In this document: piece after piece, positions 3,217 through 58,760 of the stretch
How positions within the stretch are numbered: position 1 is the stretch's first letter
Layout of the letters: every line of letters starts with the position of its first letter
Position numbers and translations under genes: made by a program
Source: Nonlabens sp.
Lineage (GTDB): Bacteria > Bacteroidota > Bacteroidia > Flavobacteriales > Flavobacteriaceae
DNA: 59,038 bases
Assembly (NCBI GenBank): GCA_020630715.1
Contig: JAHDIQ010000010.1
Coordinates: 1 to 59,038 of the forward strand
Direction: 5' to 3'
Notes under the pieces: generated by a model
The model's database searches: none
Seen by the model: only the letters and a program-made list of their open reading frames with translations
What the model was told of the DNA's origin: nothing

Positions 3217-4884
3217 TTAGAATCGAATGAGCAGGTTTAAATGAGCTATTGTGCTGGAAAAGTCCACTTTAGAGTTGTTAAATACACCATTAGCAATACT
3301 TAGTTTTAATAATCCAGCATTTGTTAAAATTCCAGTGCCAAAACCAAATGAATATAGGTTTTCTAGGTTTTTGGTGTTAAAATTCTCGAAATAGCCAGCA
3401 TCTACAATACTGTGAATGTAAATACCAGGAGATAATTCGATACGATATTCAGTATTTATACTACTAAAGAATGAAGTGTCTATGGCATTTTGATTAAATC
3501 CTCTGATGCTATTCAAACCACCTACCTGATAAAGTTCATTAAATATGCTGTTCTCTGTCTTCAAATAATTTAATCTACCTATCGCTAGGAATGATTGTTT
3601 TTCTGTAATTCTAAAATGTTTCAGTAATGTGGTTTTTATTCTTATTTGATAGTCGCTATCATTTGACAGTTCTCTGGATCCTATGTTTACGGTATTGCTT
3701 ACTAGAAATTGCTCTTGTTGTAAAGGACGGTTGTTTCTTCTTTCATGAATAAAGTTGAATCCTATTCCATTAAAATTATAATTTCTAGAGTTGGTGTTGT
3801 TTAAATCAGTTGCTGTGGAAGATGTGGATGTGTAATTCATTCCTATCTCTGTTAGATGGTTAGGTAGGTAAAAAAGACCAGCTTTTATTTGTGTGTTCTG
3901 GTAAGTGCTGTCTCTTCTTAATATTTCTAGATTTGATTGTAGTCCTATTTTGCTCTTTAATATATATGGTAATTTTAAATTAACGTTTAATCTAGTTTGA
4001 TCTTCGTTATCACCGCGATATATGATATGAAAGAGTTCACCTGTATTAAGGTTGTTTTGCAACAGTAGGTCTAGGTATCCATTTAGTTCTAGTGTTCCGT
4101 CTTGATTTGAATTGAATCCTATCATTCCATCCACGGTATTGTTGTTGGTTCGTTTTAAATAGGTGTAAAGAATCGTGCTGTCTTTCTTGAATAATAACTC
4201 TGGTTCTTTTACGACTTCTACAAAACTAAGTTCTCCTAATTTTTCTGTAATAGAATTAATGTTTTTCTGGTTAGCTTCTTTGTTTTTTCTAGTTATCGCC
4301 TTTAAATAGGTTTTTGGGAAATTAGGATATCCCTTTATGGCAATGCGGTCTATAGTTCGTAACGATCCTGCAGTAACTTCTATGGTGAGATGGACGGTGT
4401 CTGTTGGGTTAAAGATGAATTCAACTGGCTCCACTTTTGCCATGTTGTATCCTTGGTTGTTTAAGTAGTCCTTTAACTCAGTAAGTTGCTGTTGTAGTTG
4501 ATGAGCTGGTATGGTGTTTTTATTTCGCTTTCGCGAAAGCAAAATATCTAAAACCTCTTTGCTTTGATCATCTAAAGCAGTACTATTGATTTTTATATGT
4601 GTATATTTTTTCCCTAAATCAATTTCAGAACTGTAGGTTGAATCATTTAACCTTTGAAGAGGTTGTTCTAGTAGTCCAAAATATCCGTCACTTTTCAACT
4701 GATTTAAAATGCTGTCTTTTAACTCGATTAACTGCTTAAAGTTGCTAACGGTTTTCTTAGAGTAAAGAGAGTCTAATATTTGAGAGTGAGTGGAGTCTTT
4801 AGTGGTTACTTCCCACAATAATGATTGCCCGTTACTAACTACATGAAATAGTAGATATAAATATAGGACAATTAACTTTTTCAA
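3217..4884 (-). CDS. Omp85/TamA-like outer-membrane protein (POTRA + barrel)
   Basis: 555 residues with a signal peptide (MKKLIVLYLYLLFHVVSNGQ). The N-terminal half looks like POTRA modules (e.g. the segment around LRTIDRIAIKGYPNFPKTYL). The C-terminal half is a beta-barrel with the Omp85 signature GGLNSIRGFNQNA and a terminal phenylalanine. Family members insert or export outer-membrane proteins (BamA, TamA, FhaC types). It is shorter than BamA (about 800 residues) and has fewer POTRAs, so a TamA-like or two-partner role is more likely; which one is open. A copy of the dispersed palindrome at 4527-4540 is translated in frame as LSRKR. The gene diverges from the ribosomal superoperon. Confidence 0.8.
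   Translation of the reverse strand: MKKLIVLYLYLLFHVVSNGQSLLWEVTTKDSTHSQILDSLYSKKTVSNFKQLIELKDSILNQLKSDGYFGLLEQPLQRLNDSTYSSEIDLGKKYTHIKINSTALDDQSKEVLDILLSRKRNKNTIPAHQLQQQLTELKDYLNNQGYNMAKVEPVEFIFNPTDTVHLTIEVTAGSLRTIDRIAIKGYPNFPKTYLKAITRKNKEANQKNINSITEKLGELSFVEVVKEPELLFKKDSTILYTYLKRTNNNTVDGMIGFNSNQDGTLELNGYLDLLLQNNLNTGELFHIIYRGDNEDQTRLNVNLKLPYILKSKIGLQSNLEILRRDSTYQNTQIKAGLFYLPNHLTEIGMNYTSTSSTATDLNNTNSRNYNFNGIGFNFIHERRNNRPLQQEQFLVSNTVNIGSRELSNDSDYQIRIKTTLLKHFRITEKQSFLAIGRLNYLKTENSIFNELYQVGGLNSIRGFNQNAIDTSFFSSINTEYRIELSPGIYIHSIVDAGYFENFNTKNLENLYSFGFGTGILTNAGLLKLSIANGVFNNSKVDFSSTIAHLNLLIRF
4527..4540. repeat. Palindrome copy inside the Omp85-like gene
   Basis: Perfect GCTTTCGCGAAAGC, read in frame as LSRKR in the linker-like region between POTRA blocks. 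Confidence 0.8.
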
Positions 4885-4983
4885 AAAGGATGTGTATCTG
4901 CGGTTATTGAGGTATAAAGAACGTTCTAAATCTACTAAATCTTATGTATTTGAAAATTAATATGTAAATATTTGAAACTGAGG

Positions 4984-5014
4984 TTTGAATAAGTAGATTT
5001 TATTTATACCTTTG
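4984..5014 (+). promoter_or_regulatory. Promoter of the ribosomal superoperon
   Basis: TTTG at 4984-4987, then exactly 19 bases, then TACCTTTG at 5007-5014. This fits the known Bacteroidota sigma-ABfr consensus TTG-N19-TAnnTTTG in both boxes and in spacing. It lies 41 bases upstream of rpsL, in the gap between divergent genes. Confidence 0.8.
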
Positions 5015-5055
5015 CCGACCCTAAAATAGGGATTAATTTATTAGCGTAAAACAAT

Positions 5056-5430
5056 ATGCCAACGATTTCACAATTAGTACGTAAAGGAAGAGCCAAAATT
5101 ACCAAGAAGAGTAAATCGGCTGCTTTAGATTCTTGTCCTCAACGTCGTGGAGTATGTACGCGTGTTTACACCACTACACCTAAGAAGCCTAACTCTGCAA
5201 TGAGAAAGGTTGCTCGTGTACGTCTTACTAACGGTAAGGAAGTAAACGCCTACATCCCAGGAGAAGGTCACAATCTACAAGAGCACTCGATAGTATTGGT
5301 AAGAGGTGGAAGGGTAAAAGATTTGCCAGGAGTTAGATATCACATCGTGCGTGGCGCACTGGACACCGCAGGTGTTGCAGGTCGTACACAACGTAGATCT
5401 AAGTACGGTGCAAAACGCCCTAAGAAGTAA
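5056..5430 (+). CDS. rpsL: 30S ribosomal protein S12
   Basis: 124 residues, the normal length. S12 sits at the decoding centre of the small subunit and helps control accuracy. The conserved core [19 protein letters not shown] is present with the wild-type lysine at the streptomycin-sensitive position (TPKKPNSA), so no streptomycin-resistance change is seen there. First gene of the superoperon behind a consensus promoter, followed by rpsG after 66 bases. Confidence 0.98.
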
Positions 5431-5444
5431 ACAAATTTTAAGTG

Positions 5445-5465
5445 ATGTAGCTTTTACTACTACAT
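5445..5465 (+). other. Small inverted repeat in the rpsL-rpsG gap
   Basis: ATGTAG (5445-5450) pairs with CTACAT (5460-5465) across a nine-base loop; the flanks can add three further pairs after a mismatch. In many bacteria the str operon is controlled by S7 binding the intercistronic mRNA just before rpsG, so this could be such a site. Only the repeat is seen; the role is a guess. Confidence 0.3.
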
Positions 5466-5496
5466 GACTTTAATTAACAAACTCAATTAAGAAGAA

Positions 5497-8440: not shown

Positions 8441-8473
8441 GAATTACGCTTTCGCGAAAGCGTAATTCTTTTT
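8441..8473 (+). terminator. 28-bp perfect palindrome plus T run (possible terminator or attenuator) between rpsJ and rplC
   Basis: GAATTACGCTTTCG at 8441-8454 is followed without a spacer by its exact reverse complement to 8468, then TTTTT. As RNA it would fold into a long hairpin followed by U residues, as in an intrinsic terminator or attenuator, although a perfect palindrome has no built-in loop and about four central bases must open. It contains the dispersed 14-mer core of this genome (GCTTTCGCGAAAGC) in its longest perfect form in the window. It may reduce read-through from the str genes into the S10/spc genes; this is inference. Confidence 0.5.
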
Positions 8474-8500
8474 ATATAATAACAATTAATTACAATAATT

Positions 8501-9118
8501 ATGTCTGGGTTAATAGGAAGAAAAATCGGAATGACTAGCATCTATGACGAGAATGGTAAAAATATGCCATGTACGATCATTGAGGCAGGTCCTTGCGTTG
8601 TTACCCAAGTCAGAACTGAAGAAGTAGACGGTTATGAAGCGCTACAGCTAGGTTTCGATGACAAATCAGACAAGAATGCCTCTAAAGCGATCCAAGGTCA
8701 CTTTAAGAAAGCAGGTACTGGTGTCAAAAGAAAAGTAGCCGAATTCAAAGGTTTTGATGAGGAATACAAATTAGGAGATGCAGTAACAGTTGATATGTTC
8801 ACAGAAGGTGAGTTTGTTGATGTTTCTGGTACTTCAAAAGGTAAAGGTTTTCAAGGTGTTGTAAAACGTCATGGATTTGCTGGTGTAGGTCAAGCGACTC
8901 ACGGTCAGCACAACAGATTGAGAGCACCAGGATCGATAGGTGCCGCATCTTATCCAGCTCGTGTATTTAAAGGTATGCGTATGGCAGGACAGATGGGGAA
9001 CGAAAAAGTAAAAGTTCAAAATTTAAGAGTTCTTAAAGTGGTAGCAGATAAAAATTTGCTAGTAGTTAAAGGATGTGTTCCAGGGCACAAAAACTCTTAC
9101 GTAATCGTACAAAAGTAA
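8501..9118 (+). CDS. rplC: 50S ribosomal protein L3
   Basis: 205 residues. L3 is an early assembly protein near the peptidyl-transferase centre. The finger loop [20 protein letters not shown] with the usual glutamine/histidine cluster is present. First gene after the 8441 palindrome, so it may be the first gene of a separately controlled unit. Its stop TAA overlaps the rplD ATG by one base. Confidence 0.97.
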
Positions 9119-9747: not shown

Positions 9748-9750
9748 GTT

Positions 9751-10041: not shown

Positions 10042-10057
10042 ATAAGACCGACAAAAG

Positions 10058-10882: not shown

Positions 10883-10884
10883 TT

Positions 10885-11163: not shown

Positions 11164-11171
11164 TCTAAGCT

Positions 11172-11582: not shown

Positions 11583-11589
11583 CAAGGAT

Positions 11590-16781: not shown

Positions 16782-17234
16782 ATGAGTTTACATAATCTTA
16801 AACCTGCTTCAGGTTCAGTAAAAACTGCTGGTAAAGTAATAGGTCGTGGACAAGGTTCCGGTAAAGGTGGTACTGCAACTCGTGGTCACAAAGGTGCTAA
16901 GTCTAGATCTGGTTACTCTAAGAAAATAGGTTTTGAAGGTGGTCAAATGCCTTTGCAACGTCGTGTTCCTAAGTTTGGTTTTAAAAATATCAATAGAAAG
17001 GATTATGCAGGTGTAAATCTTGATGTAATTCAGGAATATCACACTGCAGGTCGTTTGTCAGATAACATTACAATTGATAACCTTATCGAGGAGCGTTTAG
17101 TTGGTAAAAATGATTTGGTTAAAATACTAGGTAGAGGTGAAATTAACGCTTCAGTTACTATTACGGCTCATAAATTTACCGCTTCCGCGAAAGCTGCTAT
17201 CGAGAAGGTTGGCGGCCAAGCTCAAACTGTTTAA
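16782..17234 (+). CDS. rplO: 50S ribosomal protein L15
   Basis: 150 residues. Late-assembly protein with the usual glycine/basic N-terminal tail (GRGQGSGKGGTATRGHKGAK) followed by the globular domain. Near the end, GCTTCCGCGAAAGC at 17181-17194 differs by one base from the dispersed palindrome core, read as ASAKA; in such a conserved gene this may be chance. secY follows after nine bases. Confidence 0.97.
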   Translation: MSLHNLKPASGSVKTAGKVIGRGQGSGKGGTATRGHKGAKSRSGYSKKIGFEGGQMPLQRRVPKFGFKNINRKDYAGVNLDVIQEYHTAGRLSDNITIDNLIEERLVGKNDLVKILGRGEINASVTITAHKFTASAKAAIEKVGGQAQTV

Positions 17235-24407: not shown

Positions 24408-24429
24408 TCACGCTTTCGCGAAAGCGTGA
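24408..24429. repeat. Dispersed palindrome copy (22 bp perfect)
   Basis: TCACGCTTTCG followed by its exact reverse complement, 27 bases after the eno stop. Contains the 14-mer core repeated through the window. No T run follows, so terminator activity is less likely than for the separate hairpin at 24456. Confidence 0.85.
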
Positions 24430-26916: not shown

Positions 26917-26932
26917 CGCTTTCGCGAAAGCG
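26917..26932. repeat. Dispersed palindrome copy before ctlX
   Basis: CGCTTTCGCGAAAGCG, perfect over 16 bp, lying in the 29-44 base gap between the two hydrolase genes and just upstream of the ctlX start, where it could form an mRNA hairpin close to the ribosome landing site. Confidence 0.85.
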
Positions 26933-28604: not shown

Positions 28605-30035
28605 TTAATTCCCAGTCGCGATATGTCTTATCATTCCTGCAAAAATAAAATAGTGAAATGGCAACATACTGTACCAGTACAATCGTCCCCAAATACCTCG
28701 TGGTCTAAACGTTGCTGTTTGATGTACTACGCCTTCATCATCTATTTCAAATTCTAGCCAGGCTTCACCAGGTACTTTCATTTCGGCAAAAAGCAGTAGC
28801 CGTTTCTCATCCTTATCTGCTACTAATACTCGCCAGAAGTCTAATGAATCACCGGCATAAATCTTATCTGCATTAGTACGACCACGACGCAAGCCTACAC
28901 CGCCAAAAAGTTTATCCACATAACCTCGTATTTTCCATAAGAACGTGGCGTAGTAATAACCATTTTTTCCACCTATGGACCAGATGCGTTCTAGTGCTTC
29001 TTCTGGATTTGAGCTTTGTAGTTTTTGCGCGTCTTTAAGACAGCCATAGCTAGGTACTTGTTTATATTTATTAAGATTGCGTTTAAAAAATCGACCACTT
29101 ACCATACTGTCTTTCCAGCTACTGGCTACTTGATTTTGTTCAATTTTACTAAAAGCCATTTCTAGCGCTTCCTCATAAGTATACAATTCTATTCCTAATC
29201 TTGCGCCTAAATCATTCTCTCGTGCTACTACTTCTACAGCCATACTGTTGACTAGGTTTTGTGCCAGTTTATAAGAGGTACTGGTTACAAAATAAAGCCA
29301 ATAAGAACTCAACTTAGGTGTCATGACGGGAACGGTAAAAATGTATAATTTGATTTTACGCATTCGCGCATAACGCAACATCATGTCTTTATAAGTAAGC
29401 ACATCTTTTCCACCTATGTCGTAACTGTGATCATAACAATCTTCACGACCTAAAACACCTGTTAAGTAGCTCATAACATTGCGTATGGCAATAGGATGCG
29501 TTTTTGTATTTACCCATTTAGGTGTGATCATCACAGGTAGTTTCTCACATAAATCTCTTACGATTTCAAAGGACGAACTTCCGCTACCTACTATGATTCC
29601 AGCTCGTAGCACCGTAAGTGCACAATCTGCCTGATAAAGTAGTTCTTCAACACGCTTTCGCGAAAGCAAATGTTTACTCAACTTATCTTCATTCACGATC
29701 CCTGATAGGTAGATGATTTGCTTACATGATGTTTTATTGATGAGACTCACAAAATTTGTAGCACTTTCTGCCTCTAGACTATCAAAGCTTTCTGTACTGC
29801 TACTCATAGAATGAATCAGGTAGTAAGCGACATCGATATTTTGAGGTAGGTGAGTGGTGTCATAGATTTTTAAGAAGTCTATCTCCACAATCTCTATTTG
29901 CTCCTTAATCTCATCTGGTATGGATAATCGCGATGCACTGCGCACAGCACAAATTACTTCATGATCTTGCTTTAACAACTCATAAAGTAATCGTACGCCT
30001 ATATAACCGTTTGCACCGGTAAGTAATACTCTCAT
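28605..30035 (-). CDS. SDR-family NAD(P)-binding protein with DUF2867 domain
   Basis: 476 residues. N-terminal Rossmann fold opens MRVLLTGANGYIGVRLLYEL, the nucleotide-binding glycine motif of extended SDRs (NAD-dependent epimerase/NmrA-like). The C-terminal third (from about residue 330; FWRVLVADKDEKRLLLFAEM, FRPRGIWGRLYWYSMLPFHY) is DUF2867. The last 25 residues are hydrophobic. Function unknown; some such proteins are annotated as NAD(P)H-binding epimerases. A palindrome copy at 29654-29667 is translated in frame as LSRKR, in a loop of the Rossmann domain. Confidence 0.78.
   Translation of the reverse strand: MRVLLTGANGYIGVRLLYELLKQDHEVICAVRSASRLSIPDEIKEQIEIVEIDFLKIYDTTHLPQNIDVAYYLIHSMSSSTESFDSLEAESATNFVSLINKTSCKQIIYLSGIVNEDKLSKHLLSRKRVEELLYQADCALTVLRAGIIVGSGSSSFEIVRDLCEKLPVMITPKWVNTKTHPIAIRNVMSYLTGVLGREDCYDHSYDIGGKDVLTYKDMMLRYARMRKIKLYIFTVPVMTPKLSSYWLYFVTSTSYKLAQNLVNSMAVEVVARENDLGARLGIELYTYEEALEMAFSKIEQNQVASSWKDSMVSGRFFKRNLNKYKQVPSYGCLKDAQKLQSSNPEEALERIWSIGGKNGYYYATFLWKIRGYVDKLFGGVGLRRGRTNADKIYAGDSLDFWRVLVADKDEKRLLLFAEMKVPGEAWLEFEIDDEGVVHQTATFRPRGIWGRLYWYSMLPFHYFIFAGMIRHIATGN
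29654..29667. repeat. Palindrome copy inside the SDR-DUF2867 gene
   Basis: Perfect 14-mer core, read in frame as LSRKR. Confidence 0.8.
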
Positions 30036-30137: not shown

Positions 30138-33100
30138 TTAATCAGATGTCTCAGATTTAGCTGAAGATTTCTTTGCAGAAACCTTCTTTCGATTGTCTCT
30201 CAAGTTTCTATCTATTAATTTATGGAATGGATCTATTCCAACTTCGATAGGTTTTTCTTTAACAATAACGTCATGAGTTGACGAAATATCTGTGACTTTT
30301 ATTTTCTCTAAATACAGTACATTTTCATTTCCTGTTTCAGGATCCTCTTCACCTAAAACGCCTATCTCTATATAATCTGCTAATGGTAATGAAGAGATGG
30401 TATCTTTTTCTTTAACATATAGCAGGCTGTCTTGCGCCGTATCGCTGTAATCTTTTTTACCTTTTTTATAGCTACGGTATTTGCTTATTTGAGCATCAAT
30501 ATTCACGAGGTAATCACCATTAGGTAATTCAGTATATGATGCTTCATCGATCTTGTTGTCGTATAAGGTTATGGTTTCAAACATATCTTTTACAAGATAT
30601 TGTAATGAATCAGGTGTTACTGCTTTTAGGTCTTCAACAAATTCTGTAGATACCGGATAAGGAGCATCTTTGAATTGATATTTCTGTGCAAAACGTTTGG
30701 CTACGCCATTGAATACGTCTTCACCTATATAGTCGCTCATTGCGTATAGAACTACAGATCCTTTACGATAATGAATATACTGTTGATTTTCATTATACAT
30801 AAGTGGTTGTTCTTTAATTGTTTCACTTGTACGACCAGTGAGGTACTGATCCATATTGTCTTTTAGGAAACGACGCATCTGATACTTTCCATAAACACGT
30901 TCTAGAACCTTAAGTGAGCTGTATTCTGACATGCTTTCTGAAAGTAGGGTCATACCTTTAGCTTTTGCACCTATTACTTGATGTGCCCACCATTGATGCG
31001 CAAGCTCATGTGCTGTAATAGCTAGTGAGTAATCTACAGCATCTTTATCTTCATCATCCACATCTGCAATGAATCCTACACCTTCACTAAAAGGAATTGT
31101 ATTTGCAAATGCCTGTGCAAATGATCCAAACTGTTTAGGGAATTCGATAATACGTGCCTGTCTATGCTGGTACGGCGTGTATGCAGTACCAAAATAGTCT
31201 AATCCTTCCTTTAATCCTGTCATCATACGATCTAGGTTATAAGTGTGATCTGGATGATGATAGATTTCTAGATTTATACCGTTGTGAACCTCGCGCTTTA
31301 CTGCATATTCACCGCTCATGAATGAATAAAAGTTGAGCATTTTACTATCCATTTTATAATGGAAGTATTTACGACCATTTTTTTCCCATTCTTTGATTAA
31401 ATATCCAGGTGCAATAGCAATCTGATCTGGAGAGGTACTTAACGTCGCCTCAAAGTCAATCCAGTCACTATAACCACCTATGTAATTATTATCTCTAACT
31501 CCAGGTTTGTTTGGGTCTGGTAAACGGTCTTTAGGTGGTAGATTGTACTTTTCACGCACTTGTTGATTACGTAATTCTAAACCATCATTGTAACCTATAG
31601 AAGGGAATAACTGTCCTTGGTTTACAAAGGTCCCATTACTAACAATAGGTGAGTTATTATCTAGAAAGCGATTAGGTTTATTTTCTGTTGTGAATTTAAA
31701 TTCTAAGGTGTCTCCTGGTTGTAGCGCTTTTTCAAATGCATACATACGATAATCATACTCCTCGTTATCGTACACGATTTCAGCCTTGCGATCTAGTACA
31801 ATTTCAGTTGGATAATTAGTTAGACTTACGTGTAATGTGTCAATGGATACACTGTCCTTGTTTACCATTAAAAAGGTCGCACCAGCTTTAAAGTCCTTTG
31901 TCTCAGGAAACATATCCATAAAAGTATTCACGGCAACAATTCTAGGTTGAGGTAGGCCATTAAATTTCCCTAAATCCTTTTCAAAACTAACACGTAATTC
32001 TTCACGTTCTTTTCCGCTCATGCGCTCATTCCAAACATTGTTCACCGTCCAGGAATAGCTACCTATAGCAATAAACCCTAGTAAGCAAAAAATGCCAGTG
32101 ATAAGAATAGGTTTTGAAAATCTCGCTTTGGCGAAAGCGAAACGTTCTTTAACGTTAGTGCCCATTCCACGCCTATAAAATACAATTGCAAGTAATAATA
32201 AAATGACACCAAATAATATCCAGTATGTTCTAAACGTAAAGTAACGTGGTAATGCAGAACCGTAACCCATAAAATCAGATGGGCTAGGATTTCCTCCAGA
32301 ATTAAATTGGAAAATGGCTTGATCTACACCTAAAGCATCCTGTAACGATGGAATTGCAACAGCGATAACTAATAAAAGTACAAGTCCTAGCCACTTGTTT
32401 TTAATTAAGGTGTGAATTAAAAGTGCTAGACATATCCATGGCACATATCGCCAGATATTGATGATAAACCCTTGGAATAAATAGATATCTAATTGAAAGT
32501 CAAAGAAGCCATTTAACGCTTGATAAATAATACCGCAAAGAATTAGTAAGACTTGAAATACCGCAACCATAATTACTAGAGCGATAAACTTAGAACCTAT
32601 AAATACCCAGTTTTGGGTAGGTGTTACATCTACGATCTGATGCAGATGAGCTGCTTTTGCCCGATCCATCAAAAATCCGGAATAGAGATGAATTAAAAGA
32701 TAGGTGAATAATAAGATGTAGGTGGATGGTTCGGCTAACATTACCCATGTTTTAGGTAATAATGACGTGCTATAGATCATCGATGAAAATGACATCATAA
32801 CAAATGTAAGCGTAACAGCGAGCACACCTATGATAATAAAAGGCCATCCTTTTAGAATATATGCAGTATCACTTTTTGCGATTTGCCACATCGTTTTTAA
32901 TCTACCTACAAAAGAGAAATCTTGAGTAGCTACTGGCATAATCACTTTCTCAACAGAACTGATGTTCTTCTTAACAATTCGTTTTCCAGATTTTTTAAAG
33001 AAACTCCAACTAGCGGCGTTTTGAGCAAAATTGAATTTGAAGATAACACCTAGTAAAACCAGTAGTGAAATCCCGCACCACAATAAACGATTATATAAAA

Positions 33101-39249: not shown

Positions 39250-40677
39250 GTGACTTATCTAAATGTATATCCTAACTGGAAACGGTTATCAAAAGACCGC
39301 ATAGATCAGAATATTCTAGAAGCGCTATCGCATAATATTAATTATTATGATAGCCCTAAAATGGGTGTGCCTGCATCACATTTAGATAAGCAAGAATTTG
39401 CTCCAGATTCTCAGGTATTAGAAGGATCTACCTATTTAAAAACACTCATTAATAATCCTAATCATATAGGTGTGCACACAGATACAGACCTGTCTGAACC
39501 TTATTTTGCAGGAACACAACGCCTAGAAGCACAAGTTATTAAAATCATAAGTGAGGATATTTTAAAAGCCCTACCAGATAGCGTGGATGGCTACGTATCA
39601 TCTGGTGGAACAGAAGGAAACATACAAGCGATTTGGGTCTATAGGAACTTGTTTAATGAAGTCCATCAACTTCATAAAGATTACAGCTCTATCGCAGTAT
39701 TGTGCAGTGAAGATGCACATTACAGCATGGATAAGGCAGCAAACCTATTAAATCTCACTATTACCAAAATCAAAGTAAATACAGATACTAGAGTCATTGA
39801 TTCAGACCATCTGGCGATAACGATAGAAGCTTTAGCATCGCAAGGAATTGATAAAATCATATTAGTGTGTAATATGATGACCACCATGTATGGATCTGTA
39901 GATCAACTAGATGATTACATGAGTGTATTAAATAATCATCCAGAATTTAAAGTGAAAGTTCATGTAGATGGTGCTTATGGTGGTTTTTTCTTACCGTTTA
40001 CGCATCCAGATCAACCACTTAATTTTAACGATTCACGTATTGATTCTTTCACATTAGATGCGCATAAAATGTTACAATCGCCTTATGGCACTGGGATTTT
40101 TGTCATACGTAAAGGTTTACTAAAATATAGTCTGACTGATAGTGCTCAATACGTCGCTGGTATGGACTGCACGCTAGTAGGTAGTCGTAGCGGTGCAAAT
40201 GCCATAAGTATTTATAAAATTTTAATGAATTACGGTCCTTATGACTGGGCAGAGCGCATGCTTGCACTTGCAGATCGTACGACTAGACTAAAAAACCAAT
40301 TATTGAATTGGAATGTGCGTTTAATTCATTTTGAAGGAAGCAATATTGTCGCCATCCATCATTCTTTTATCACGCCGGTTATAGCAACCACTTACGGTTT
40401 AGTACCAGATAATCATCACCATCCACAATGGTATAAAATCGTTGTGATGGATCATGTAAAAGGTGATAAGATCATGCAGTTTTTACAGGATTTTAAAGCT
40501 TCTCAACTAGAATTAGATCATCATAAGCAGGATGATGAAAACGATACCACTTTCCTACAGCAACACTTCGACAAGCTCAGTACATCGCATGTGCGGCACA
40601 GGCTTCTTTTTATGACGCTTTCGCGAAAGCGAAATCAAAAGAACGCGAAATCACTAGAACCCATTACTAAAAATTAA
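39250..40677 (+). CDS. Pyridoxal-phosphate decarboxylase (group II, GadB/Hdc-like)
   Basis: 475 residues; starts with GTG at 39250. PLP-dependent amino-acid decarboxylase fold: SGGTEGNIQAIW, HVDGAYGGF with the PLP aspartate, and the lysine in TLDAHKMLQSPYGTGIF. Substrate not decided by sequence (histidine, glutamate, tyrosine and others share the fold). The last 40 residues or so are odd: from about QQHFDKLSTSHVRHRLLF onwards the coding sequence appears to run into repeat DNA, ending with LSRKR from the palindrome at 40616-40631. The natural C-terminus may have been replaced. The MBL-rhodanese gene follows after four bases. Confidence 0.85.
   Translation: MTYLNVYPNWKRLSKDRIDQNILEALSHNINYYDSPKMGVPASHLDKQEFAPDSQVLEGSTYLKTLINNPNHIGVHTDTDLSEPYFAGTQRLEAQVIKIISEDILKALPDSVDGYVSSGGTEGNIQAIWVYRNLFNEVHQLHKDYSSIAVLCSEDAHYSMDKAANLLNLTITKIKVNTDTRVIDSDHLAITIEALASQGIDKIILVCNMMTTMYGSVDQLDDYMSVLNNHPEFKVKVHVDGAYGGFFLPFTHPDQPLNFNDSRIDSFTLDAHKMLQSPYGTGIFVIRKGLLKYSLTDSAQYVAGMDCTLVGSRSGANAISIYKILMNYGPYDWAERMLALADRTTRLKNQLLNWNVRLIHFEGSNIVAIHHSFITPVIATTYGLVPDNHHHPQWYKIVVMDHVKGDKIMQFLQDFKASQLELDHHKQDDENDTTFLQQHFDKLSTSHVRHRLLFMTLSRKRNQKNAKSLEPITKN
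40616..40631. repeat. Dispersed palindrome copy inside the PLP decarboxylase
   Basis: CGCTTTCGCGAAAGCG, perfect, read as LSRKR near the gene's 3' end. Preceded by CTTCGACAAGCTCAG at 40567, which also looks like a repeat-type sequence. Confidence 0.85.
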
Positions 40678-42233: not shown

Positions 42234-43065
42234 ATCGGCTTTTTTTCTGGCCACTATTCATAGGAATAACTTGATGTGTCGCGCCTAGTTTGTTAAGTTG
42301 CTTTTCTAGTTTTGGTACGTTTTCTTTACGCGATATGAGACAGGTAAACCAGCCTACCTGTTTTTGAAAATCAACACTTTCTTTAATGAGTCGTTTTGCA
42401 AAAAGCGCCTCGCCACCATTGCACCATAATTCATGTGATTTACCCTTAAAGTTACGGTGGTATGAAACAGTACCTAAATTTGCATTTTTTCGTTTGTTTG
42501 CTTTGAAAGCTTCATTTTCACTACTATAAAACGGCGGATTACACATGGTGAAATCATAGAGTTCATTTGGTTTTATGATGTTCTTTAGTATTGATCCACG
42601 ATCAGATTGTAATCGTATTTCTAGATGTGATTTCTTGTGTGATTTAGGTAGAGAGATTTGTTCTTTTAAAGCTTTCGCAAAAGCGTAACTATCCTCATCC
42701 ACTTCACTACCTACCATTTTCCAGTTGAAAAGAGCAGTTCCTAATATCGGATAGATCATATTTGCTCCAGTACCGATGTCTAAACCTGTTTTATGATCTT
42801 TACCTACCAGATCTGCGATATGGAGTAAGTAGTCCACACGACTAGGTACTGGTGGTGATAAATATCCTTGAGGTAAGGTATAGTTTTCAACTCCATAATG
42901 CAGTTTTAACAACGCTGCGTTTAAGGCTAGCACCGCATCAGCATCAGAGAAATCAATACTGATCTGACCATCTTCTTTAGTAATAAAAAAAGGTTCTAGC
43001 GCTGGATAGCTTTGTGCTAGTTGCTGTAGGTCGTAACCGTGTTTGTGTGGATTGTTATCATGCAT
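42214..43065 (-). CDS. rlmF: 23S rRNA (adenine-1618-N6)-methyltransferase
   Basis: 283 residues from the ATG at 43065 (MHDNNPHKHGYDLQQL); a TTG nine bases upstream is rejected. SAM-binding motif DIGTGANMIYP, catalytic NPPF in FTMCNPPFYSSENEAF, as in the RlmF family. Methylates A1618 of 23S rRNA. A one-mismatch palindrome at 42671-42684 is read as AFAKA. Convergent with the Cys-rich gene. Confidence 0.93.
   Translation of the reverse strand: MHDNNPHKHGYDLQQLAQSYPALEPFFITKEDGQISIDFSDADAVLALNAALLKLHYGVENYTLPQGYLSPPVPSRVDYLLHIADLVGKDHKTGLDIGTGANMIYPILGTALFNWKMVGSEVDEDSYAFAKALKEQISLPKSHKKSHLEIRLQSDRGSILKNIIKPNELYDFTMCNPPFYSSENEAFKANKRKNANLGTVSYHRNFKGKSHELWCNGGEALFAKRLIKESVDFQKQVGWFTCLISRKENVPKLEKQLNKLGATHQVIPMNSGQKKSRFIAWKF
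42671..42684. repeat. Variant palindrome inside rlmF
   Basis: GCTTTCGCAAAAGC, one change from the core, read in frame as AFAKA. Confidence 0.65.
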
Positions 43066-45650: not shown

Positions 45651-48263
45651 TTGAAAAAGTATTCCCTACTCATTCTTTTAGTTTTTTTGAATTTCGCTTT
45701 CGCGAAAGCGCAATCTGTAAACACTTCATACCTATGTCTAGCAAATGGAGATATCGTATTAGCAGATTTAGGTAATTGCACGAGTACGGTTGTGGCGACG
45801 TACACCTCATCGTTTTTTGATATCGCACAAGGTGATACAGATGACACTTTATACGGAATACGTAACGATGAACTATTTGAAATCAACGTAGTTACTGGAA
45901 ATGTAACCTCATTAGGGTTATTAAATATCATAGGGTTTACAGGTAATTTTAGAGTAGATTCGTTAGTAAAAGAATCTCCTGGAACCTTACTAGGTGTCCA
46001 CTCAGACGGATTAGGCGGATTATTCAGATTTGATGTTGCGTCCATGACAGCTACTTTTTTAGGAAATACAAACTTTTCCAGTGCTGGTGACTTAACATTT
46101 TTCAATGGAAATCTTTACCTAAGCGCAGATGGGAACGAACTAGTCCTTATTGATATAAACAATCCTTCAAATTCCTCACTAGTAGGGACGATTCCGGCTG
46201 TAGCTGGATTTAATAGTGTTTTTGGTGTGGTTACGATTATTACCGCAAATCCTTGCGCTACAAATCCCACGTTTGAGCTAGTAGCAACTGGTGGTAACGA
46301 TACTAGGTTTGTAGACATTATGACGGCTCAAACGACGGTAAATTGTAGTAACCTAGTGAGCTCAAATATCTTTGGCGCGGCAGAGGTAGCAAGTGATGTG
46401 ATATGCTCCATTGATCTAGAAATAGATGATAGTGGTGATTTAACGCCAGAATATTGTGGTAATGCTATAACAACTCTAACAACTACCCCAGATCCAGCCA
46501 CACCTCTAGGAGTTTATGCTTATGAATGGCGCATACAAGGACAACCTGGTGTCGTAGGAACAAGCGCTATTTTACCTATTAATATTAACGTAACTACCAC
46601 ATACGAATGTACCATCATAGATTCTGGTCGTGTAGCTCCAGATAATATTGCAACGGCTACTATTACGGTTGCCGTAAACCCTATCCCATCGTTGAACGCG
46701 ATTTCAAATGTTATTGCGCATTCCTTTTATACCTTACCAGTAGTTACTGGTACAAACATACCAGCAAACACAGCTTTTTACGATAATCCCGCGCATTCAG
46801 GAACACCGTGGAATACTGGCGATATGATTACACCATCAATGTTAGCTTCTAATCCTGCCACTATTTACGTGTATGGAATTGATGCGAGTGGTTGTGAATT
46901 GATAGAACAATTTGTTGTTGAATTTGTGGATGTACAAGTAACCATTTCTCCTGGTGGTATTCAAGATGTGTGTACAGGAGATATAGTAACGCTTACGGCA
47001 ACTCCAGTTCCTAATGCACCTTACGGAAGCTATACCTATAATTGGGATGATAGTCAAGGAACGGTTTTTCCTGATACAGCTACCATAACGGTAACCTTAA
47101 GTGCAGCCACAACAGTATCTGTAACGGTTAGCGATTCTGGTGTTGAGAATGGAACTGCAATGGGATTTGACATGACAGATTTTAATGTATTACCAGTCGT
47201 GGATATTACAGATCTCATGGATCAAAATGCAACTAGTAGTTTTACTTTTCCAGCAATTACAGGATCAGGACTGACAGGCACCCAGGCTTATTACACACAG
47301 CCTAATGGCATGGGAACTCCATACAATGCTGGTGATGTAGTTACAGCTTCAGATTTTACTGCCTTTCCAGTTACAATTTATATCTATGATGATAATGGTA
47401 GTTGTGATGATGAGGAATCTTTTTTACTAGATATTATAACACCACAACCATTAAACTTAGTTTTAACTAGTGATATGGATAACCTATGTCCAGAGGAATC
47501 AGTCACACTTACCGCTACAATAAATCCTTCAACAGCTCAAGGAACCTATAGTTATGAATGGTCTGTTCTAGGTAGTTCAAGTATCCTATCTATAAATGCA
47601 ATGGCAACAGTAATACCTAGCGCAACTACAACTTACGAATGTACTGTTACAGATAGTGGACTTGCTACAAATAATACCATCACAGAATCTATTATAATTA
47701 CGGTGGTTGCATCACCTGAAATAGATCCATTAGCAAATCAAAACGCTACAGGTAGTTTTACATTTCCAACGATTACAGGATTAAATTTAAGTGGTAATGA
47801 ACAGTTTTATACGCAGTCAGGTGGTCTAGGTAATGCATACCTAGCAGGAGATATGATTGATATTACAGAATTTAGTTCCTATCCAGTAACACTATATGTT
47901 TATGATATAAACATGTCTGGATGTGAAGATGAAATTAGCTTTGATTTGGAGATTAATCCAGTAGTCATCATTCCAGAACCAGAAGTGCCATTATTTATAA
48001 TTCCTGATTATGTGACTCCTAATAATGATGGTTTTAATGATTTCTGGGCCATTGAAGTAAATAGTGATGATATTGTGATACATAGTATTTATATCTTTGA
48101 TCGTTACGGTAAATTATTGAAGCAAATCGCTCCGGATGGTGTAGGATGGGATGCTACTTATCATAGTAATCCATTACCATCTAGTACATACTGGTATGTC
48201 ATCAATTATGAAAACGATGGCATGTCACAAGAATTGAGAGGCTTTTTTGCGGTAAAAAGATAG
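45651..48263 (+). CDS. T9SS type B cargo protein (gliding-motility C-terminal domain)
   Basis: 870 residues from a TTG start at 45651, which opens directly on a signal peptide (MKKYSLLILLVFLNFAFAKAQ). N-terminal about 200 residues are a propeller-like region; then three related modules of about 145 residues (GTYSYEWSV-type Ig folds alternating with FTFPxITG...YxYD units); then a linker and the C-terminal sorting domain from about residue 785 (YVTPNNDGFNDFW ... IYIFDRYGKLL ... GFFAVKR) that directs export by the type IX system. The palindrome at 45695-45710 encodes AFAKA at the presumed signal-peptidase site. Confidence 0.9.
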   Translation: MKKYSLLILLVFLNFAFAKAQSVNTSYLCLANGDIVLADLGNCTSTVVATYTSSFFDIAQGDTDDTLYGIRNDELFEINVVTGNVTSLGLLNIIGFTGNFRVDSLVKESPGTLLGVHSDGLGGLFRFDVASMTATFLGNTNFSSAGDLTFFNGNLYLSADGNELVLIDINNPSNSSLVGTIPAVAGFNSVFGVVTIITANPCATNPTFELVATGGNDTRFVDIMTAQTTVNCSNLVSSNIFGAAEVASDVICSIDLEIDDSGDLTPEYCGNAITTLTTTPDPATPLGVYAYEWRIQGQPGVVGTSAILPININVTTTYECTIIDSGRVAPDNIATATITVAVNPIPSLNAISNVIAHSFYTLPVVTGTNIPANTAFYDNPAHSGTPWNTGDMITPSMLASNPATIYVYGIDASGCELIEQFVVEFVDVQVTISPGGIQDVCTGDIVTLTATPVPNAPYGSYTYNWDDSQGTVFPDTATITVTLSAATTVSVTVSDSGVENGTAMGFDMTDFNVLPVVDITDLMDQNATSSFTFPAITGSGLTGTQAYYTQPNGMGTPYNAGDVVTASDFTAFPVTIYIYDDNGSCDDEESFLLDIITPQPLNLVLTSDMDNLCPEESVTLTATINPSTAQGTYSYEWSVLGSSSILSINAMATVIPSATTTYECTVTDSGLATNNTITESIIITVVASPEIDPLANQNATGSFTFPTITGLNLSGNEQFYTQSGGLGNAYLAGDMIDITEFSSYPVTLYVYDINMSGCEDEISFDLEINPVVIIPEPEVPLFIIPDYVTPNNDGFNDFWAIEVNSDDIVIHSIYIFDRYGKLLKQIAPDGVGWDATYHSNPLPSSTYWYVINYENDGMSQELRGFFAVKR
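45695..45710. repeat. Palindrome copy encoding a signal-peptide cleavage site
   Basis: CGCTTTCGCGAAAGCG in the frame GCT TTC GCG AAA GCG, giving A-F-A-K-A just before Q, the likely first mature residue. A-x-A is the classic signal peptidase I site. Confidence 0.85.
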
Positions 48264-48935: not shown

Positions 48936-48949
48936 GCTTTCGCGAAAGC
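48936..48949. repeat. Dispersed palindrome copy in the OmpH-hppD gap
   Basis: Perfect 14-mer core, 40 bases beyond the terminator of the OmpH gene and 70 bases before the candidate leader ORF of hppD. Confidence 0.85.
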
Positions 48950-53802: not shown

Positions 53803-54567
53803 TTAAAATGTATATCGCGTTCCTAGGAACACACTGTAGTTTAATGCTCTACCAGCATCTATTTCTTGGATTAATGGCAATTGTACTGCTAGGTCAAAGG
53901 TGACTGTTTTAAGCGCGTATTGAATTCCTTGTGCATAGAGTAACTGGTACCAGTCACGCTCGTGCAACCATACACTATTGTATTCAAAATAGAGATTGAG
54001 CTGTTTGTTAGGATATTGCGGTTTTAATAGCGGTAGGCCGAATCCTAATTTTGCTCTAAACTCATCTAGCGTACCATCTGGCATCCAGTTGTAACCTATC
54101 TCTGTAGAGATACCATATTTTATGGTTTCATAACCAGTTACTACACCGTAATATCCAGCATAACGACCGGTCGCTATATCCATGACATCAATATCTGCGC
54201 CAGTAGGTAGGGTTTGCAATGTTTTTGCAACCATTCTGAAGGTTTTTGCCTTGCCATCCTTGCGGTAAAACTGATATTTACCCATAATTTTCATATCTGC
54301 TAGACCACTACCATTTACATCGTTAAGGCTGTAATTAGTGTAAGGTACATGTAAAGCTACTAGCATATTTGCGGTAGGCAAATAGTGCAGCATTACAGGT
54401 GTGTATAGAATAGTGCCACGCTCTGTATTTCTGATTTCTGTTAGGGTTTTCATAGTAAAACTTTTACCACCTAACATGATGGGCTTATCTGCCGTTATGG
54501 GAGGTCCTTGTGAGTACGCTTTCGCGAAAGCGAAAACCACAACAACCACATAAATAATATATTTCAT
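53803..54567 (-). CDS. Outer-membrane beta-barrel protein (transporter-like)
   Basis: 254 residues. Signal peptide MKYIIYVVVVVFAFAKAYSQ, where AFAKA comes from the palindrome at 54517-54532. The rest is an amphipathic beta-barrel with aromatic strand ends and a C-terminal TF, resembling the MetA-pathway/phenol-degradation barrel family. Located between HYC-type and HMA-type metal proteins, so it may move metal or its complexes across the outer membrane. Confidence 0.75.
   Translation of the reverse strand: MKYIIYVVVVVFAFAKAYSQGPPITADKPIMLGGKSFTMKTLTEIRNTERGTILYTPVMLHYLPTANMLVALHVPYTNYSLNDVNGSGLADMKIMGKYQFYRKDGKAKTFRMVAKTLQTLPTGADIDVMDIATGRYAGYYGVVTGYETIKYGISTEIGYNWMPDGTLDEFRAKLGFGLPLLKPQYPNKQLNLYFEYNSVWLHERDWYQLLYAQGIQYALKTVTFDLAVQLPLIQEIDAGRALNYSVFLGTRYTF
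54517..54532. repeat. Palindrome copy encoding a signal-peptide cleavage site
   Basis: CGCTTTCGCGAAAGCG translated as AFAKA within the signal peptide of the outer-membrane protein, followed by YSQ. Confidence 0.85.
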
Positions 54568-57122: not shown

Positions 57123-57872
57123 ATGAAATTATTACTCTTAAACTTTATTGCAGAGGCTAAGCCTATGGCAGTAGATGACTATGTAGGATTTACATTCTTT
57201 GTAGGATGTATGGCAATGATGGCAGCAAGTGCCTTCTTTTTCCTATCGATGAACAGTTTTGATAAAAAGTGGCGCGTGTCCATTTTAGTATCAGGACTTA
57301 TTACCTTTATTGCAGCAGTGCATTATTTCTATATGCGCGACTATTGGGCAGCATTTGAAGACTCACCTACATTCTTTAGATATGTGGATTGGGTGCTAAC
57401 CGTGCCGTTAATGTGTGTTGAGTTCTACTTAATTTTAAGAGTAGCTGGCGCAAAAAAATCATTAATGTGGAAATTGATCTTCTGGTCAGTAGTGATGTTA
57501 GTAACTGGATACTTTGGAGAAGCAATCCATACTACAGGAGCTGGACCAGCTTTATGGGGACTTGCATCTGGTATCGCATATTTCATTATCGCTTACATGA
57601 TCTGGTTTGGAGAGGCAAAGAAACTTGCAGAAGCTGCTGGCGGACACGTACTAACAGCTCATAAAGCATTATGCTGGTTTGTATTAGTAGGATGGGCAAT
57701 TTACCCATTAGGCTACATGGCGGGAACAGAAGGATGGTATGATGGACTGTCCAGTCTAGGTCTTAACATGGATGTGATCTACAACATAGGTGATGCTGTG
57801 AATAAAATCGGTTTTGGACTTGTAGTGTACAACCTTGCGGTAAATGCTTCTAAAAATAAAGTAGAGGCGTAA
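57123..57872 (+). CDS. Proteorhodopsin, green-tuned proton pump
   Basis: 249 residues, seven helices. Helix C reads RYVDWVLTVPLMCVEF: proton acceptor Asp89, Thr93 and donor Glu100 form the D-T-E set of proton pumps (D97, T101, E108 in standard numbering). The tuning residue (standard 105) is Met97, as in green-absorbing flavobacterial forms. The acceptor partner His67 lies in VHYFYMRDYW, and the retinal lysine is Lys228 in DAVNKIGFG, with Asp224. Light-driven proton export gives energy in sunlit water. A terminator follows directly; blh lies divergently upstream. Confidence 0.96.
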   Translation: MKLLLLNFIAEAKPMAVDDYVGFTFFVGCMAMMAASAFFFLSMNSFDKKWRVSILVSGLITFIAAVHYFYMRDYWAAFEDSPTFFRYVDWVLTVPLMCVEFYLILRVAGAKKSLMWKLIFWSVVMLVTGYFGEAIHTTGAGPALWGLASGIAYFIIAYMIWFGEAKKLAEAAGGHVLTAHKALCWFVLVGWAIYPLGYMAGTEGWYDGLSSLGLNMDVIYNIGDAVNKIGFGLVVYNLAVNASKNKVEA

Positions 57873-57896
57873 GTATCAGTAATTTTATAGTAATAG

Positions 57897-57927
57897 AAAC
57901 CAGCTCATTTTGAGCTGGTTTTTTTGT
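57897..57927 (+). terminator. Terminator of the proteorhodopsin gene
   Basis: Perfect 11-bp stem AAACCAGCTCA (57897-57907), loop TTT, TGAGCTGGTTT, followed by T residues. Begins 24 bases after the stop, so the rhodopsin is a single-gene transcript. Confidence 0.88.
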
Positions 57928-58020
57928 TTTGAAGTATTTCGTTTTCGATCAATTGTTATAATTAGATCAAAACGACACTAGCTATTTAAAACTAGATACC
58001 TTTGATGATCAATCTAAATA

Positions 58021-58055
58021 AAAAAATGCCTTTCCTAAATGGAAAGGCATTTTTT
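58021..58055. terminator. Terminator, probably for the minus-strand lipoprotein gene
   Basis: Perfect 15-bp stem AAAAAATGCCTTTCC (58021-58035), loop TAAAT, reverse complement to 58055. Lies 30 bases past the stop of the 58085 gene; A and T runs on both sides allow use in both directions. Confidence 0.85.
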
Positions 58056-58084
58056 AAAATGGAGTATAAATAGTTTAAAGTAAC

Positions 58085-58603
58085 TTATAAAGCTTGTGCT
58101 GTTACAGTAAGTCTAAAAGTAAAAATAGCTGTTACTTCACCGTTTTGTGCTGGATCTTGAGCACCGTTAATAGAAACTGATAATTGATTTGTATTTCTTA
58201 ACGTAGATTCTAAAGCATTTAACTTAGAAGCACCCGTAAGCGCAAATTCTTCCATGCTTTGTGTATCTGCACTAAAATCATGTGTAAAAGGCCCGAATGT
58301 CTCACCAGCACCAGTAACAGTAGCTGTTCCTGTGGCATTTGCAGTTCCTACATAATTGCTTAGTCTATAAGAAGCATCTGTGATCTGTATTCCCTCGATA
58401 CGATCTAGATAAGGCTCAATATCACTATTTCCTGCAAAATCAATATTGATGGTTTCACTAAAAGTGGTGTTTTGATCAGAAAAATTGATGGTTACTTCCT
58501 CTGTAATGGTAGTGTTAAAATCTACTTCGGTTAACTCATCCAGTTCGTCACAACTTGTAAAGGCTATGAATGCAAGGCACACATATAATAATTTGGTTTT
58601 CAT
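58085..58603 (-). CDS. Hypothetical lipoprotein, beta-rich
   Basis: 172 residues from ATG 58603 (MKTKLLYVCLAFIAFTSCDE); earlier in-frame starts at 58621 and 58633 are possible. Lipobox FTSC puts the anchor cysteine at 18. The mature part is short, acidic and Thr/Asn-rich, with a likely single beta-sandwich (VTINFSDQNTTFSETINIDF ... GEVTAIFTFRLTVTAQAL). Not recognised beyond that. Confidence 0.6.
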   Translation of the reverse strand: MKTKLLYVCLAFIAFTSCDELDELTEVDFNTTITEEVTINFSDQNTTFSETINIDFAGNSDIEPYLDRIEGIQITDASYRLSNYVGTANATGTATVTGAGETFGPFTHDFSADTQSMEEFALTGASKLNALESTLRNTNQLSVSINGAQDPAQNGEVTAIFTFRLTVTAQAL

Positions 58604-58744
58604 AATAAATTGGTTTTTCATAATTCGTGGCAAAGATACTTATTTTATATCATTGGTAATCATGTAATTATAAATCTCATAAAAGCATCTTAGATCTTAT
58701 AAGGTTATAATCTTGGATTGTGAGAAAAAGAATTGGGTGGATTT

Positions 58745-58760
58745 CGCTTTCGCGAAAGCG
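58745..58760. repeat. Dispersed palindrome copy in the terminal gene-free region
   Basis: CGCTTTCGCGAAAGCG, perfect. Most of the rest of 58634-59038 has no gene; it also holds AAAGTCCA-C-TGGACTTT (58948-58964) and CCTGCC/GGCAGG flanking ATTAAC (59002-59019). Confidence 0.85.

What the first reader, a model, noticed from the sequence alone, without database searches (positions are those of the whole stretch)
4527..58760. A short perfect palindrome family dispersed through genes and gaps, in only two reading frames
Seen: GCTTTCGCGAAAGC occurs exactly at 4527, 8448, 24412, 26918, 29654, 40617, 45696, 48936, 54518 and 58746, with one-change versions at 32125 and 42671. A given 14-mer is expected about 0.0002 times in 59 kb, so this is strong enrichment. 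Seven copies lie in genes and are read as AFAKA (4) or LSRKR (3), never as the third frame. Being its own reverse complement, it gives the same peptides whichever strand is coding. Inference: a mobile or conversion-spread palindrome, a protein-binding site, or a DNA-uptake/chromosome-organisation motif tolerated in coding sequence because two frames are harmless.
Basis: partly seen in the sequence, partly recalled or inferred. Interest (0 to 1): 0.75.

Follow-up and report, generated by a model that had tools for sequence, protein, structure and literature searches.

The report
Genome-wide conserved palindrome in Nonlabens
A 14-letter mirror-symmetric DNA word occurs about 600 times, with few copies close together, in the genome of a marine bacterium (Nonlabens), and natural selection appears to keep it in place across the genus, which suggests that an unknown protein reads it as a mark over the whole chromosome.

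Summary
GCTTTCGCGAAAGC is exact at all ten listed places and occurs 609 times in the 2.98-Mb genome; its reversed control 0 times. All 23 genus (Nonlabens) genomes searched, own included, carry 288-857 copies. Of 395 family genomes only four Nonlabens and two others (408, 857) are saturated; the other 389 have 0-19. "Only two reading frames" is wrong: 18 of 70 in-gene copies in a 564-kb sample use the third.

Aligned species keep the 14-mer in 438 of 692 comparisons, against 166 of 5,536 for flanking 14-mers. In-gene alignments show substitution, not insertion. Close pairs are rare, intergenic density is 5.7-fold higher, flanks extend the symmetry, and mirrored flank positions do not covary significantly, as for a homodimer-read duplex site rather than a hairpin.

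Three saturated genomes lack C5, N6/N4 and D12 methyltransferase domains, unlike cyanobacterial HIP1. Two host phages have no site, but some phage contigs do. Best reading: a self-DNA recognition site for uptake/recombination; chromosome organisation is the main rival. The reading protein was not found.

The parts
4527..4540 (.). exact GCTTTCGCGAAAGC, inside the Omp85-like gene on the minus strand (LSRKR frame)
8448..8461 (.). exact copy, intergenic after the EF-G gene and a 101-aa ORF; flanks match the extended palindrome ATTACGC...GCGTAAT
17181..17194 (.). one-change copy GCTTCCGCGAAAGC, in a 150-aa ORF between the EF-G and enolase genes
24412..24425 (.). exact copy between enolase and citrate synthase; 17 of 19 Nonlabens regions (window included) have an exact copy 177-310 bases before the citrate synthase start
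26918..26931 (.). exact copy between two DDAH-like genes; 16 of 19 aligned regions have a 14-base gap here (indel turnover)
29654..29667 (.). exact copy in a gene with NAD(P)-binding and DUF2867 domains (LSRKR frame); exact in 15 of the 17 Nonlabens rows displayed, one-change in G011, four changes in G015
32125..32138 (.). one-change copy GCTTTGGCGAAAGC; exact in several relatives at the aligned place
40617..40630 (.). exact copy near the end of a PLP-decarboxylase-like gene (LSRKR frame)
42671..42684 (.). one-change copy GCTTTCGCAAAAGC, in an RNA-methyltransferase-like gene
45696..45709 (.). exact copy near the start of a gene with a CHU_C type IX secretion signal (AFAKA frame)
48936..48949 (.). 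exact copy, intergenic
54518..54531 (.). exact copy near the start of a 254-aa ORF without a Pfam match (AFAKA frame)
58746..58759 (.). exact copy, intergenic, near the contig end

Best explanation
GCTTTCGCGAAAGC is the core of a longer symmetric site (about ATTWCGCTTTCGCGAAAGCGWAAT, with a C-poor, G/T-rich left flank and the mirror image on the right). The chromosomes of Nonlabens and of a few related Flavobacteriaceae carry about one site per 3-8 kb. Shown here: the density, the clade restriction in the genomes sampled, DNA-level conservation, substitution-type turnover in genes, rarity of close pairs, and no significant covariation between the two halves. Inferred: an unidentified homodimeric protein binds the duplex, reading each half-site separately. 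Inferred further, and committed to as most likely: the site works as a self-DNA mark in natural transformation or recombination, as DNA uptake sequences do. A fragment is preferred if it holds a site, so a second site close by adds little (rarity of close pairs), many positions serve (genes and gaps alike), and DNA acquired recently has not yet gathered sites.
For: 609 copies, control 0; 288-857 in 23 of 23 genus genomes. Conservation: 438 of 692 pairwise comparisons exact, against 166 of 5,536 flanking 14-mers (pairs share ancestry and are not independent). In coding DNA the alternatives displayed are ungapped substitutions, e.g. GCTTTCGCGAAAGC against GCTTTTGCAACTGC in the same codons. Close pairs are rare: on G000:C1 2 of 43 gaps are below 0.3 of the mean, 11.0 expected; on G001:C4 6 of 93, 23.9 expected. 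No trend by eye in 20 evenly spaced 20-kb samples of G006. The four longest gaps in the listed stretch of G001:C4, read as five pieces, hold a Wadjet (JetD) locus and an RHS-repeat gene, a secretin, an integrase-relaxase element, and an unannotated stretch just before citrate synthase like the empty stretch of the window. Phages P12024S and P12024L: 0 sites in 70.7 kb read, 14.5 expected at the density of G000. No significant half-site covariation summed over pairs 2-8. ComEC in 22 of 22 genomes tested. Riemerella columbina, of the same class, is reported to prefer its own DNA in transformation (PMC7965970, passages seen).
Against: No reading protein or receptor was found. ComEC is in site-poor genomes too. 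Known uptake sequences are not palindromes, and the author of PMC1939737 judges them not as evenly spaced as chromosome-compacting sites should be (passages). No paper in the library holds both 'Nonlabens' and 'natural transformation'. On G001:C4 the overall variation of gaps is not below random (CV 0.92 against 0.98, P 0.24), because of long empty stretches. G182 lacks the intergenic excess (4 of 37). Sites are not confined to cell DNA: 11 of 120 viral-contig stretches hold two or three copies, 16 of those 24 copies with the C and G that extend the site (10 of 109 in the single-copy stretches), and all five of these 11 that I looked at encode phage head, portal, terminase or tail proteins. 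A site useful inside the cell would explain that at least as well as an uptake signal. Rarity of close pairs would also follow from a chromosome-organising protein.
Confidence: 0.36

Rival explanations
1. Chromosome-organisation site: a nucleoid-associated homodimer binds the spaced palindromes and shapes, anchors or partitions the chromosome.
For: A perfect palindrome without significant half-site covariation suits a homodimer; rarity of close pairs; no trend along the G006 chromosome by eye; no other saturated genome among 392 phylum genomes.
Against: No paralogue of a known organiser: ParB_N is present in 23 of 23 genomes tested, single copy in 20, and the aligned helix-turn-helix shows no change shared by all saturated lineages (G006 is missing from that alignment). 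No excess in one part of the G006 chromosome, unlike terminus or origin sites (recalled). Several phage contigs carry sites, which an organiser does not obviously predict.
Confidence: 0.27
2. Chi-like or nuclease-taming site: a palindromic mark that tempers the AddAB helicase-nuclease (or another nuclease) and favours recombination; it works from both directions and marks DNA as self inside the cell.
For: Density (204 per Mb in G000) is about that of Chi in E. coli (1008 in 4.64 Mb, PMC1939737 table). Each strand is G/T-rich on the 5' side of the word (keto 0.77 and 0.74 at 6-15 bases, 0.54-0.61 to 30) and C-poor to 30; G/T-rich surroundings favour RecA (recalled). RecC is absent in 31 of 31 and an AddAB-type PDDEXK nuclease present in 31 of 31 genomes. 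Some phages carry several sites, as a phage gaining protection would.
Against: AddAB-type nucleases are equally present in site-poor genera. Known Chi words are 5-8 bases and not palindromes (recalled); a 14-base exact requirement has no precedent known to me. Two host phages carry no site.
Confidence: 0.17
3. HIP1-type site maintained through a methyltransferase, for instance by methyl-directed mismatch repair.
For: It is a highly iterated palindrome with substitution-type turnover in genes and TCGCGA at its centre; the class is tied to methyltransferases in cyanobacteria (PMC4390886: abstract, Discussion part 1 and found passages seen).
Against: C5 methylase domain in 10 of 18 saturated and 19 of 33 other genomes: no association. 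N6_N4 in 8 of 14 saturated and 3 of 9 others, D12 in 5 of 16 and 0 of 6. Of the 14 saturated genomes tested for all three, three (G009, G010, G022) lack all; G010 is one contig. Outside the word TCGCGA is at its expected frequency (45 against 47.8). N6_Mtase and type IIG families were not searched.
Confidence: 0.07
4. A mobile or copied element: the palindrome inserts, or whole copies are pasted by gene conversion.
For: Few one-change copies (21 against 107 exact in 564 kb); of 254 non-exact comparisons 212 have three or more changes or a gap and 38 one change; intergenic sites often align to gaps.
Against: The in-gene sites displayed align without indels to ordinary codons in relatives. Flanks differ between copies beyond about 20-30 bases. 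Selection on the exact word also yields few near-misses.
Confidence: 0.05
5. RNA or single-strand hairpin function such as transcription termination.
For: The extended word folds as DNA into a 10-bp stem; sites are enriched between genes in three of four genomes; mirrored pairs 2 and 3 alone reach P 0.006 and 0.044 in G006, pair 3 P 0.035 in G000.
Against: Summed over pairs 2-8 there is no significant covariation (P 0.12, 0.12, 0.93). 70 of 107 G000 copies lie inside genes. Between convergent genes the density is low in G000 (0.39 per kb against about 1.1 between co-directional genes) and 0 in G196, though 1.54 in G006, within the range of its other gaps.
Confidence: 0.04

Closest known systems
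HIP1 and alternate HIPs of cyanobacteria (GCGATCGC; PMC4390886)
   Same: Highly iterated perfect palindrome over the whole genome, inside genes and gaps, clade-specific; function unsettled.
   Different: 14-bp core with a longer symmetric flank instead of about 6-8 bp; about 130-300 per Mb instead of 1000-2000; AT-richer; three saturated genomes lack the three methyltransferase domains searched; phylum Bacteroidota.
DNA uptake sequences of Pasteurellaceae and Neisseriaceae (PMC1939737, passages)
   Same: Hundreds to thousands of copies, over-dense between genes, even spacing reported (Karlin, as cited there), tolerated in genes.
   Different: Those words are not palindromes; no uptake bias or receptor known for Nonlabens.
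Chi sites (E. coli GCTGGTGG)
   Same: Similar density; G/T-rich 5' side.
   Different: Chi is short and read as a single strand (recalled, and a reference title in PMC1939737); one-change Chi words are far commoner than exact ones (8855 against 1008), here exact copies outnumber one-change copies 107 to 21.
parS / Noc-binding sites (recalled)
   Same: 14-16 bp perfect palindromes with TTTC...GAAA halves.
   Different: Two bases shorter between the halves; hundreds of copies; no second ParB shared by the saturated genomes.

Membership tests
HIP (highly iterated palindrome) class | Perfect palindrome strongly over-represented over the whole genome, in genes and gaps | tested here: met
   609 copies, control 0; genes and gaps
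HIP (highly iterated palindrome) class | Every HIP genome has a methyltransferase predicted to recognise part of the word | tested here: not met
   G009, G010, G022 lack C5, N6_N4 and D12 domains at E 0.001; other methylase families not searched
HIP (highly iterated palindrome) class | Gain and loss by substitution, not insertion (recalled) | tested here: met
   in-gene sites displayed; intergenic sites also turn over by indel
DNA uptake sequence | Preferential uptake of DNA that holds the word | not testable with these tools
   needs a transformation assay
DNA uptake sequence | Spacing more even than random and excess between genes | tested here: inconclusive
   close pairs rare in both stretches, whole-distribution CV low in G000:C1 but not in G001:C4; intergenic excess in G000, G006, G196 but not G182
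DNA uptake sequence | Competence machinery in the genome | tested here: inconclusive
   ComEC in 22 of 22, but in site-poor genomes too; pilins and receptor not searched
Chi site | Cognate RecBCD or AddAB present | tested here: met
   RecC 0 of 31, AddAB-type nuclease 31 of 31; whether it reads this word is untested
Chi site | Directional, non-palindromic word | tested here: not met
   the word is its own reverse complement
parS / Noc site | parS-like half-site spacing; ParB or Noc paralogue | tested here: not met
   half-sites two bases closer; no word within two changes of the recalled parS in 23 parB-domain loci of about 3.3 kb; ParB_N single in 20 of 23 genomes
REP / transposable palindrome | Gained by clean insertion, mostly between genes | tested here: not met
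   ungapped substitution in the in-gene sites displayed; 70 of 107 copies inside genes

The most novel reading that the evidence does not exclude
A methylation-independent, palindromic 'self' code in Bacteroidota: a dedicated homodimeric DNA-reading protein of Nonlabens and close kin recognises about 600 spaced 14-24 bp sites to tell own from foreign DNA (uptake, repair or defence), some phages of the clade have acquired the mark, and the proteome has been shaped to carry AFAKA, LSRKR and RFRES peptides at those places.
Probability: 0.3. Interest if true: 0.88.

Novelty: new variant of a known kind. Interest (0 to 1): 0.72.

Why it matters
The function of highly iterated palindromes is unsettled; the account read here (PMC4390886) ties them to methyltransferases. 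Here a longer palindrome is genome-wide and conserved at the DNA level in a clade where at least three genomes lack the three methylase domains searched, which would separate the two. The 14-bp word is long enough for a clean pull-down. It also gives a tracer of DNA that may have left this clade (metal-resistance islands in other genera) and of phages that may infect it.

Tried and rejected
Exclusion test (do neighbouring sites replace each other between species): the first version gave P 0.0000 below 1500 and 2000 bases but was an artefact, since orthologous sites had been split into separate clusters; the second mis-projected sites across gene-order changes and gave P 0.23, 0.09, 0.03, 0.18 and 0.50 below 1000, 1500, 2000, 2500 and 3000. 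In one search the panels 'L139 10362' and 'win 8773' are poorly aligned and are not used as evidence.

ParB/Noc rejected. C5, N6_N4 and D12 methylases: no association. Alternate palindromes in kin: among the 80 named loci, apart from this word in L025 and L027, only one palindrome passed the listing limits, the 10-mer TAAAATTTTA in L052, four copies.

Paper searches, judged from listings unless said: the 14-mer 0 papers; 'highly iterated palindrom' with 'Flavobacteri' 0; TTTCGCGAAA 10; Nonlabens with palindrom 7; 3 papers; 3; 12 of 37 listed. No title or abstract start in these described this word. Subscription papers are not held.

Rows dropped: L156 (9,874 N) left out of the G006 counts but not. 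Gap statistics come from 20-kb pieces and are biased against long gaps; the contiguous sets are the ones relied on.
Full report
What is there. The genome (G000, 2,978,537 bases, 17 contigs; the window is contig C9) holds 609 copies and none of the reversed control word; independent bases would give about 0.003. The genus is Nonlabens: genus-mate G015 has a contig of the same length as the public contig CANLKV010000004.1, named uncultured Nonlabens sp., and an identical citrate synthase.

Distribution. All 23 genus genomes searched, own included, carry 288 to 857 copies. In 395 family genomes (203 genera) only the four Nonlabens and two others, G182 with 408 and G196 with 857, are saturated; of the remaining 389, 83 have 1-19 copies and 306 none. 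A contig labelled Dokdonia sp. MAG-87 has 4 copies in 19 kb and groups with G196 and G182 in a citrate-synthase tree (one gene only; the relation of that group to Nonlabens is not resolved there). Among 392 genomes of the phylum no other saturated one appears; apart from G000 the maximum is 6.

The extended site. In 78 copies from 404 kb of G000 the bases next to the 14-mer continue the symmetry: C at -1 in 87%, then A or T, T 76%, T 80%, A 74%; CGCTTTCGCGAAAGCG is complete in 58 of 78. Further out C is scarce (5-12% in the bins from -6 to -30) and G plus T exceed A plus C (0.77 and 0.74 at 6-15, 0.54-0.61 to 30), mirrored on the other side, near background beyond about 40. G006 and, more weakly, G182 show the same. 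Outside the sites TTCGCGAA occurs twice and TCGCGA at its expected frequency. Exact copies outnumber near-misses: 107 exact, 21 with one change, 10 with two in 564 kb. Summed over mirrored pairs 2-8 the flanks do not covary significantly within a copy (P 0.12, 0.12 and 0.93 in three genomes), although pair 2 (P 0.006) and pair 3 (P 0.044) do alone in G006 and pair 3 (P 0.035) in G000. So the symmetry looks more like two half-sites read separately than a base-paired stem.

Conservation, and substitution rather than insertion in genes. I fetched the 19-kb region around citrate synthase from 18 further Nonlabens genomes and from G182 and G196, aligned sites between pairs of these, the window and the Dokdonia-labelled contig, and kept 692 comparisons that span the site with about 100 bases on each side. 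The 14-mer is exact in 438 (63%); flanking 14-mers are identical in 166 of 5,536 (3.0%). The comparisons share ancestry, so these are proportions, not independent trials. At 29654 the word is exact in 15 of 17 displayed Nonlabens while surrounding codons vary; at the site homologous to L131:11575 some species have GAC GCT TTC GCG AAA GC and others GAT GCT TTT GCA ACT GC, with no gap. Intergenic sites do align to gaps (26918, 16 of 19). A rough equilibrium of 78 exact and 13 one-change copies would need a scaled selection of about 5.5 (last line; an order-of-magnitude figure).

Placement. Intergenic density is 0.77 per kb against 0.136 in genes in G000, 1.28 against 0.182 in G006, 1.53 against 0.187 in G196, but 0.15 against 0.13 in G182 (Fisher P 0.001 for G182 against the rest). 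In-gene frames are AFAKA 96, LSRKR 55, RFRES 40 over the four samples, so the 'two frames only' claim fails. On contiguous stretches close pairs are rare: G000:C1, 43 gaps, CV 0.45 against 0.97 for random placement, 2 gaps below 0.3 of the mean against 11.0; G001:C4, 93 gaps, 6 against 23.9, although its overall CV (0.92) is not unusual (P 0.24) because of long empty stretches. The four longest gaps of that G001 stretch were read as five pieces: one holds a JetD (Wadjet) gene and its neighbours and a gene with RHS repeats, one a secretin gene and two giant ORFs that I did not search, one an integrase and a relaxase, and one, not annotated, lies just before citrate synthase like the empty stretch of the window. 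Twenty evenly spaced 20-kb samples of the G006 chromosome hold 2-9 sites each without a trend by eye; the lowest is L156, half N.

Phages. Two phages of Nonlabens have no site in 70.7 kb (14.5 expected at the density of G000, P 5e-7). In these, 16 of 24 copies have the C and G that extend the site, against 10 of 109 in the single-copy stretches (L292 and L295 show the same flanks, so may be one phage). Of ten proteins searched from five of them, eight match phage-type families, among them portal, major head, terminase, head maturation protease and tail tape measure; each of the five has at least one. No DNA similarity at E 1e-20 to the saturated DNA that I hold was found, so their hosts are not known. 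Site-bearing phages therefore exist, which speaks for a use inside the cell, or for long residence as prophage, at least as much as for an uptake signal.

Candidate readers. C5 methylase domains occur in 10 of 18 saturated and 19 of 33 other genomes, N6_N4 in 8 of 14 and 3 of 9, D12 in 5 of 16 and 0 of 6; of the 14 saturated genomes tested for all, G009, G010 and G022 lack all three. ParB_N is in 23 of 23, single in 20, and the aligned helix-turn-helix (22 proteins; G006 missing) shows no change shared by all saturated lineages. RecC is in 0 of 31; an AddAB-type nuclease in 31 of 31. ComEC is in 22 of 22. None of these separates saturated from site-poor genomes.

Interpretation. A genome-wide, clade-restricted, DNA-level conserved, symmetric duplex site with few close pairs points to a dedicated homodimeric reader. 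Any function in which one site serves a few kilobases and a second adds little would give the rarity of close pairs: uptake, Chi-like action, or chromosome organisation. I still put uptake or recombination self-recognition first, because sites lie in genes of many kinds as well as in gaps, are missing from the acquired-looking islands read in G001, and because a relative of the same class prefers its own DNA in transformation (PMC7965970, passages). The palindromic form speaks as much for an organiser protein and the phage contigs for a mark used inside the cell, hence the divided confidence.

Comparison with the known. HIP1 is the closest kind (PMC4390886: abstract and outline, first part of the Discussion, found passages). 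Its methylase link is not met here for the families tested. Uptake sequences share density class, reported even spacing and tolerance in genes but are not palindromes (PMC1939737, found passages only). I therefore file it as a new variant of the highly iterated motif kind and not as a member of the HIP, uptake-sequence or Chi families.

Noticed in passing
L180-L185 (G305, G095, G090, G204, G107) and G157:C1: Site-poor genera carry small clusters of exact copies. Proteins searched in L183, L184 and L180 are mostly metal-resistance types (AcrB-type pump, outer-membrane efflux protein, multicopper oxidase, metal ATPases); L181, L182 and L185 match them in DNA at about 67-96% identity. A 933-base spacing recurs in G107, G090, G204, G095 and G157. 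They look like DNA from the saturated clade.
   Followed up: partly
L206, L220, L237, L271, L287 and six other viral-contig loci: Phage contigs with two or three copies and site-like flanks; portal, head, terminase and tail proteins in the five searched. Hosts unknown.
   Followed up: partly
window 8462-24411: About 16 kb between the EF-G region and the end of enolase, many small ORFs on one strand, read from position as the ribosomal-protein operons (only enolase annotated), without one exact copy; the longest gap in the first sample. The stretch before citrate synthase in G001 is also empty.
   Followed up: partly
L166-L179 (G182): G182 has 408 copies but no intergenic excess and more near-misses per exact copy than the other samples, as if intergenic sites were being lost first.
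   Followed up: no
L361-L390 (AddB-type nuclease loci) and L347-L360 (parB-domain loci): Saturated genomes often carry one or two copies around these DNA-maintenance genes: 20 copies in 15 nuclease loci of about 3.8 kb, and a copy in 11 of 14 parB-domain loci. In most Nonlabens ParB proteins an LSRKQ/LSRKR-like peptide sits in the linker before the C-terminal domain.
   Followed up: no
L391-L393 (G001:C4:298001-352400): A JetD (Wadjet) defence locus near two giant genes, one with RHS repeats, and a second pair of giant ORFs of similar size near a secretin gene; no exact copies in the stretches read.
   Followed up: no
window 57123-57872: Bacteriorhodopsin-like gene (Pfam Bac_rhodopsin) with an exact copy about 0.9 kb away.
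   Followed up: no
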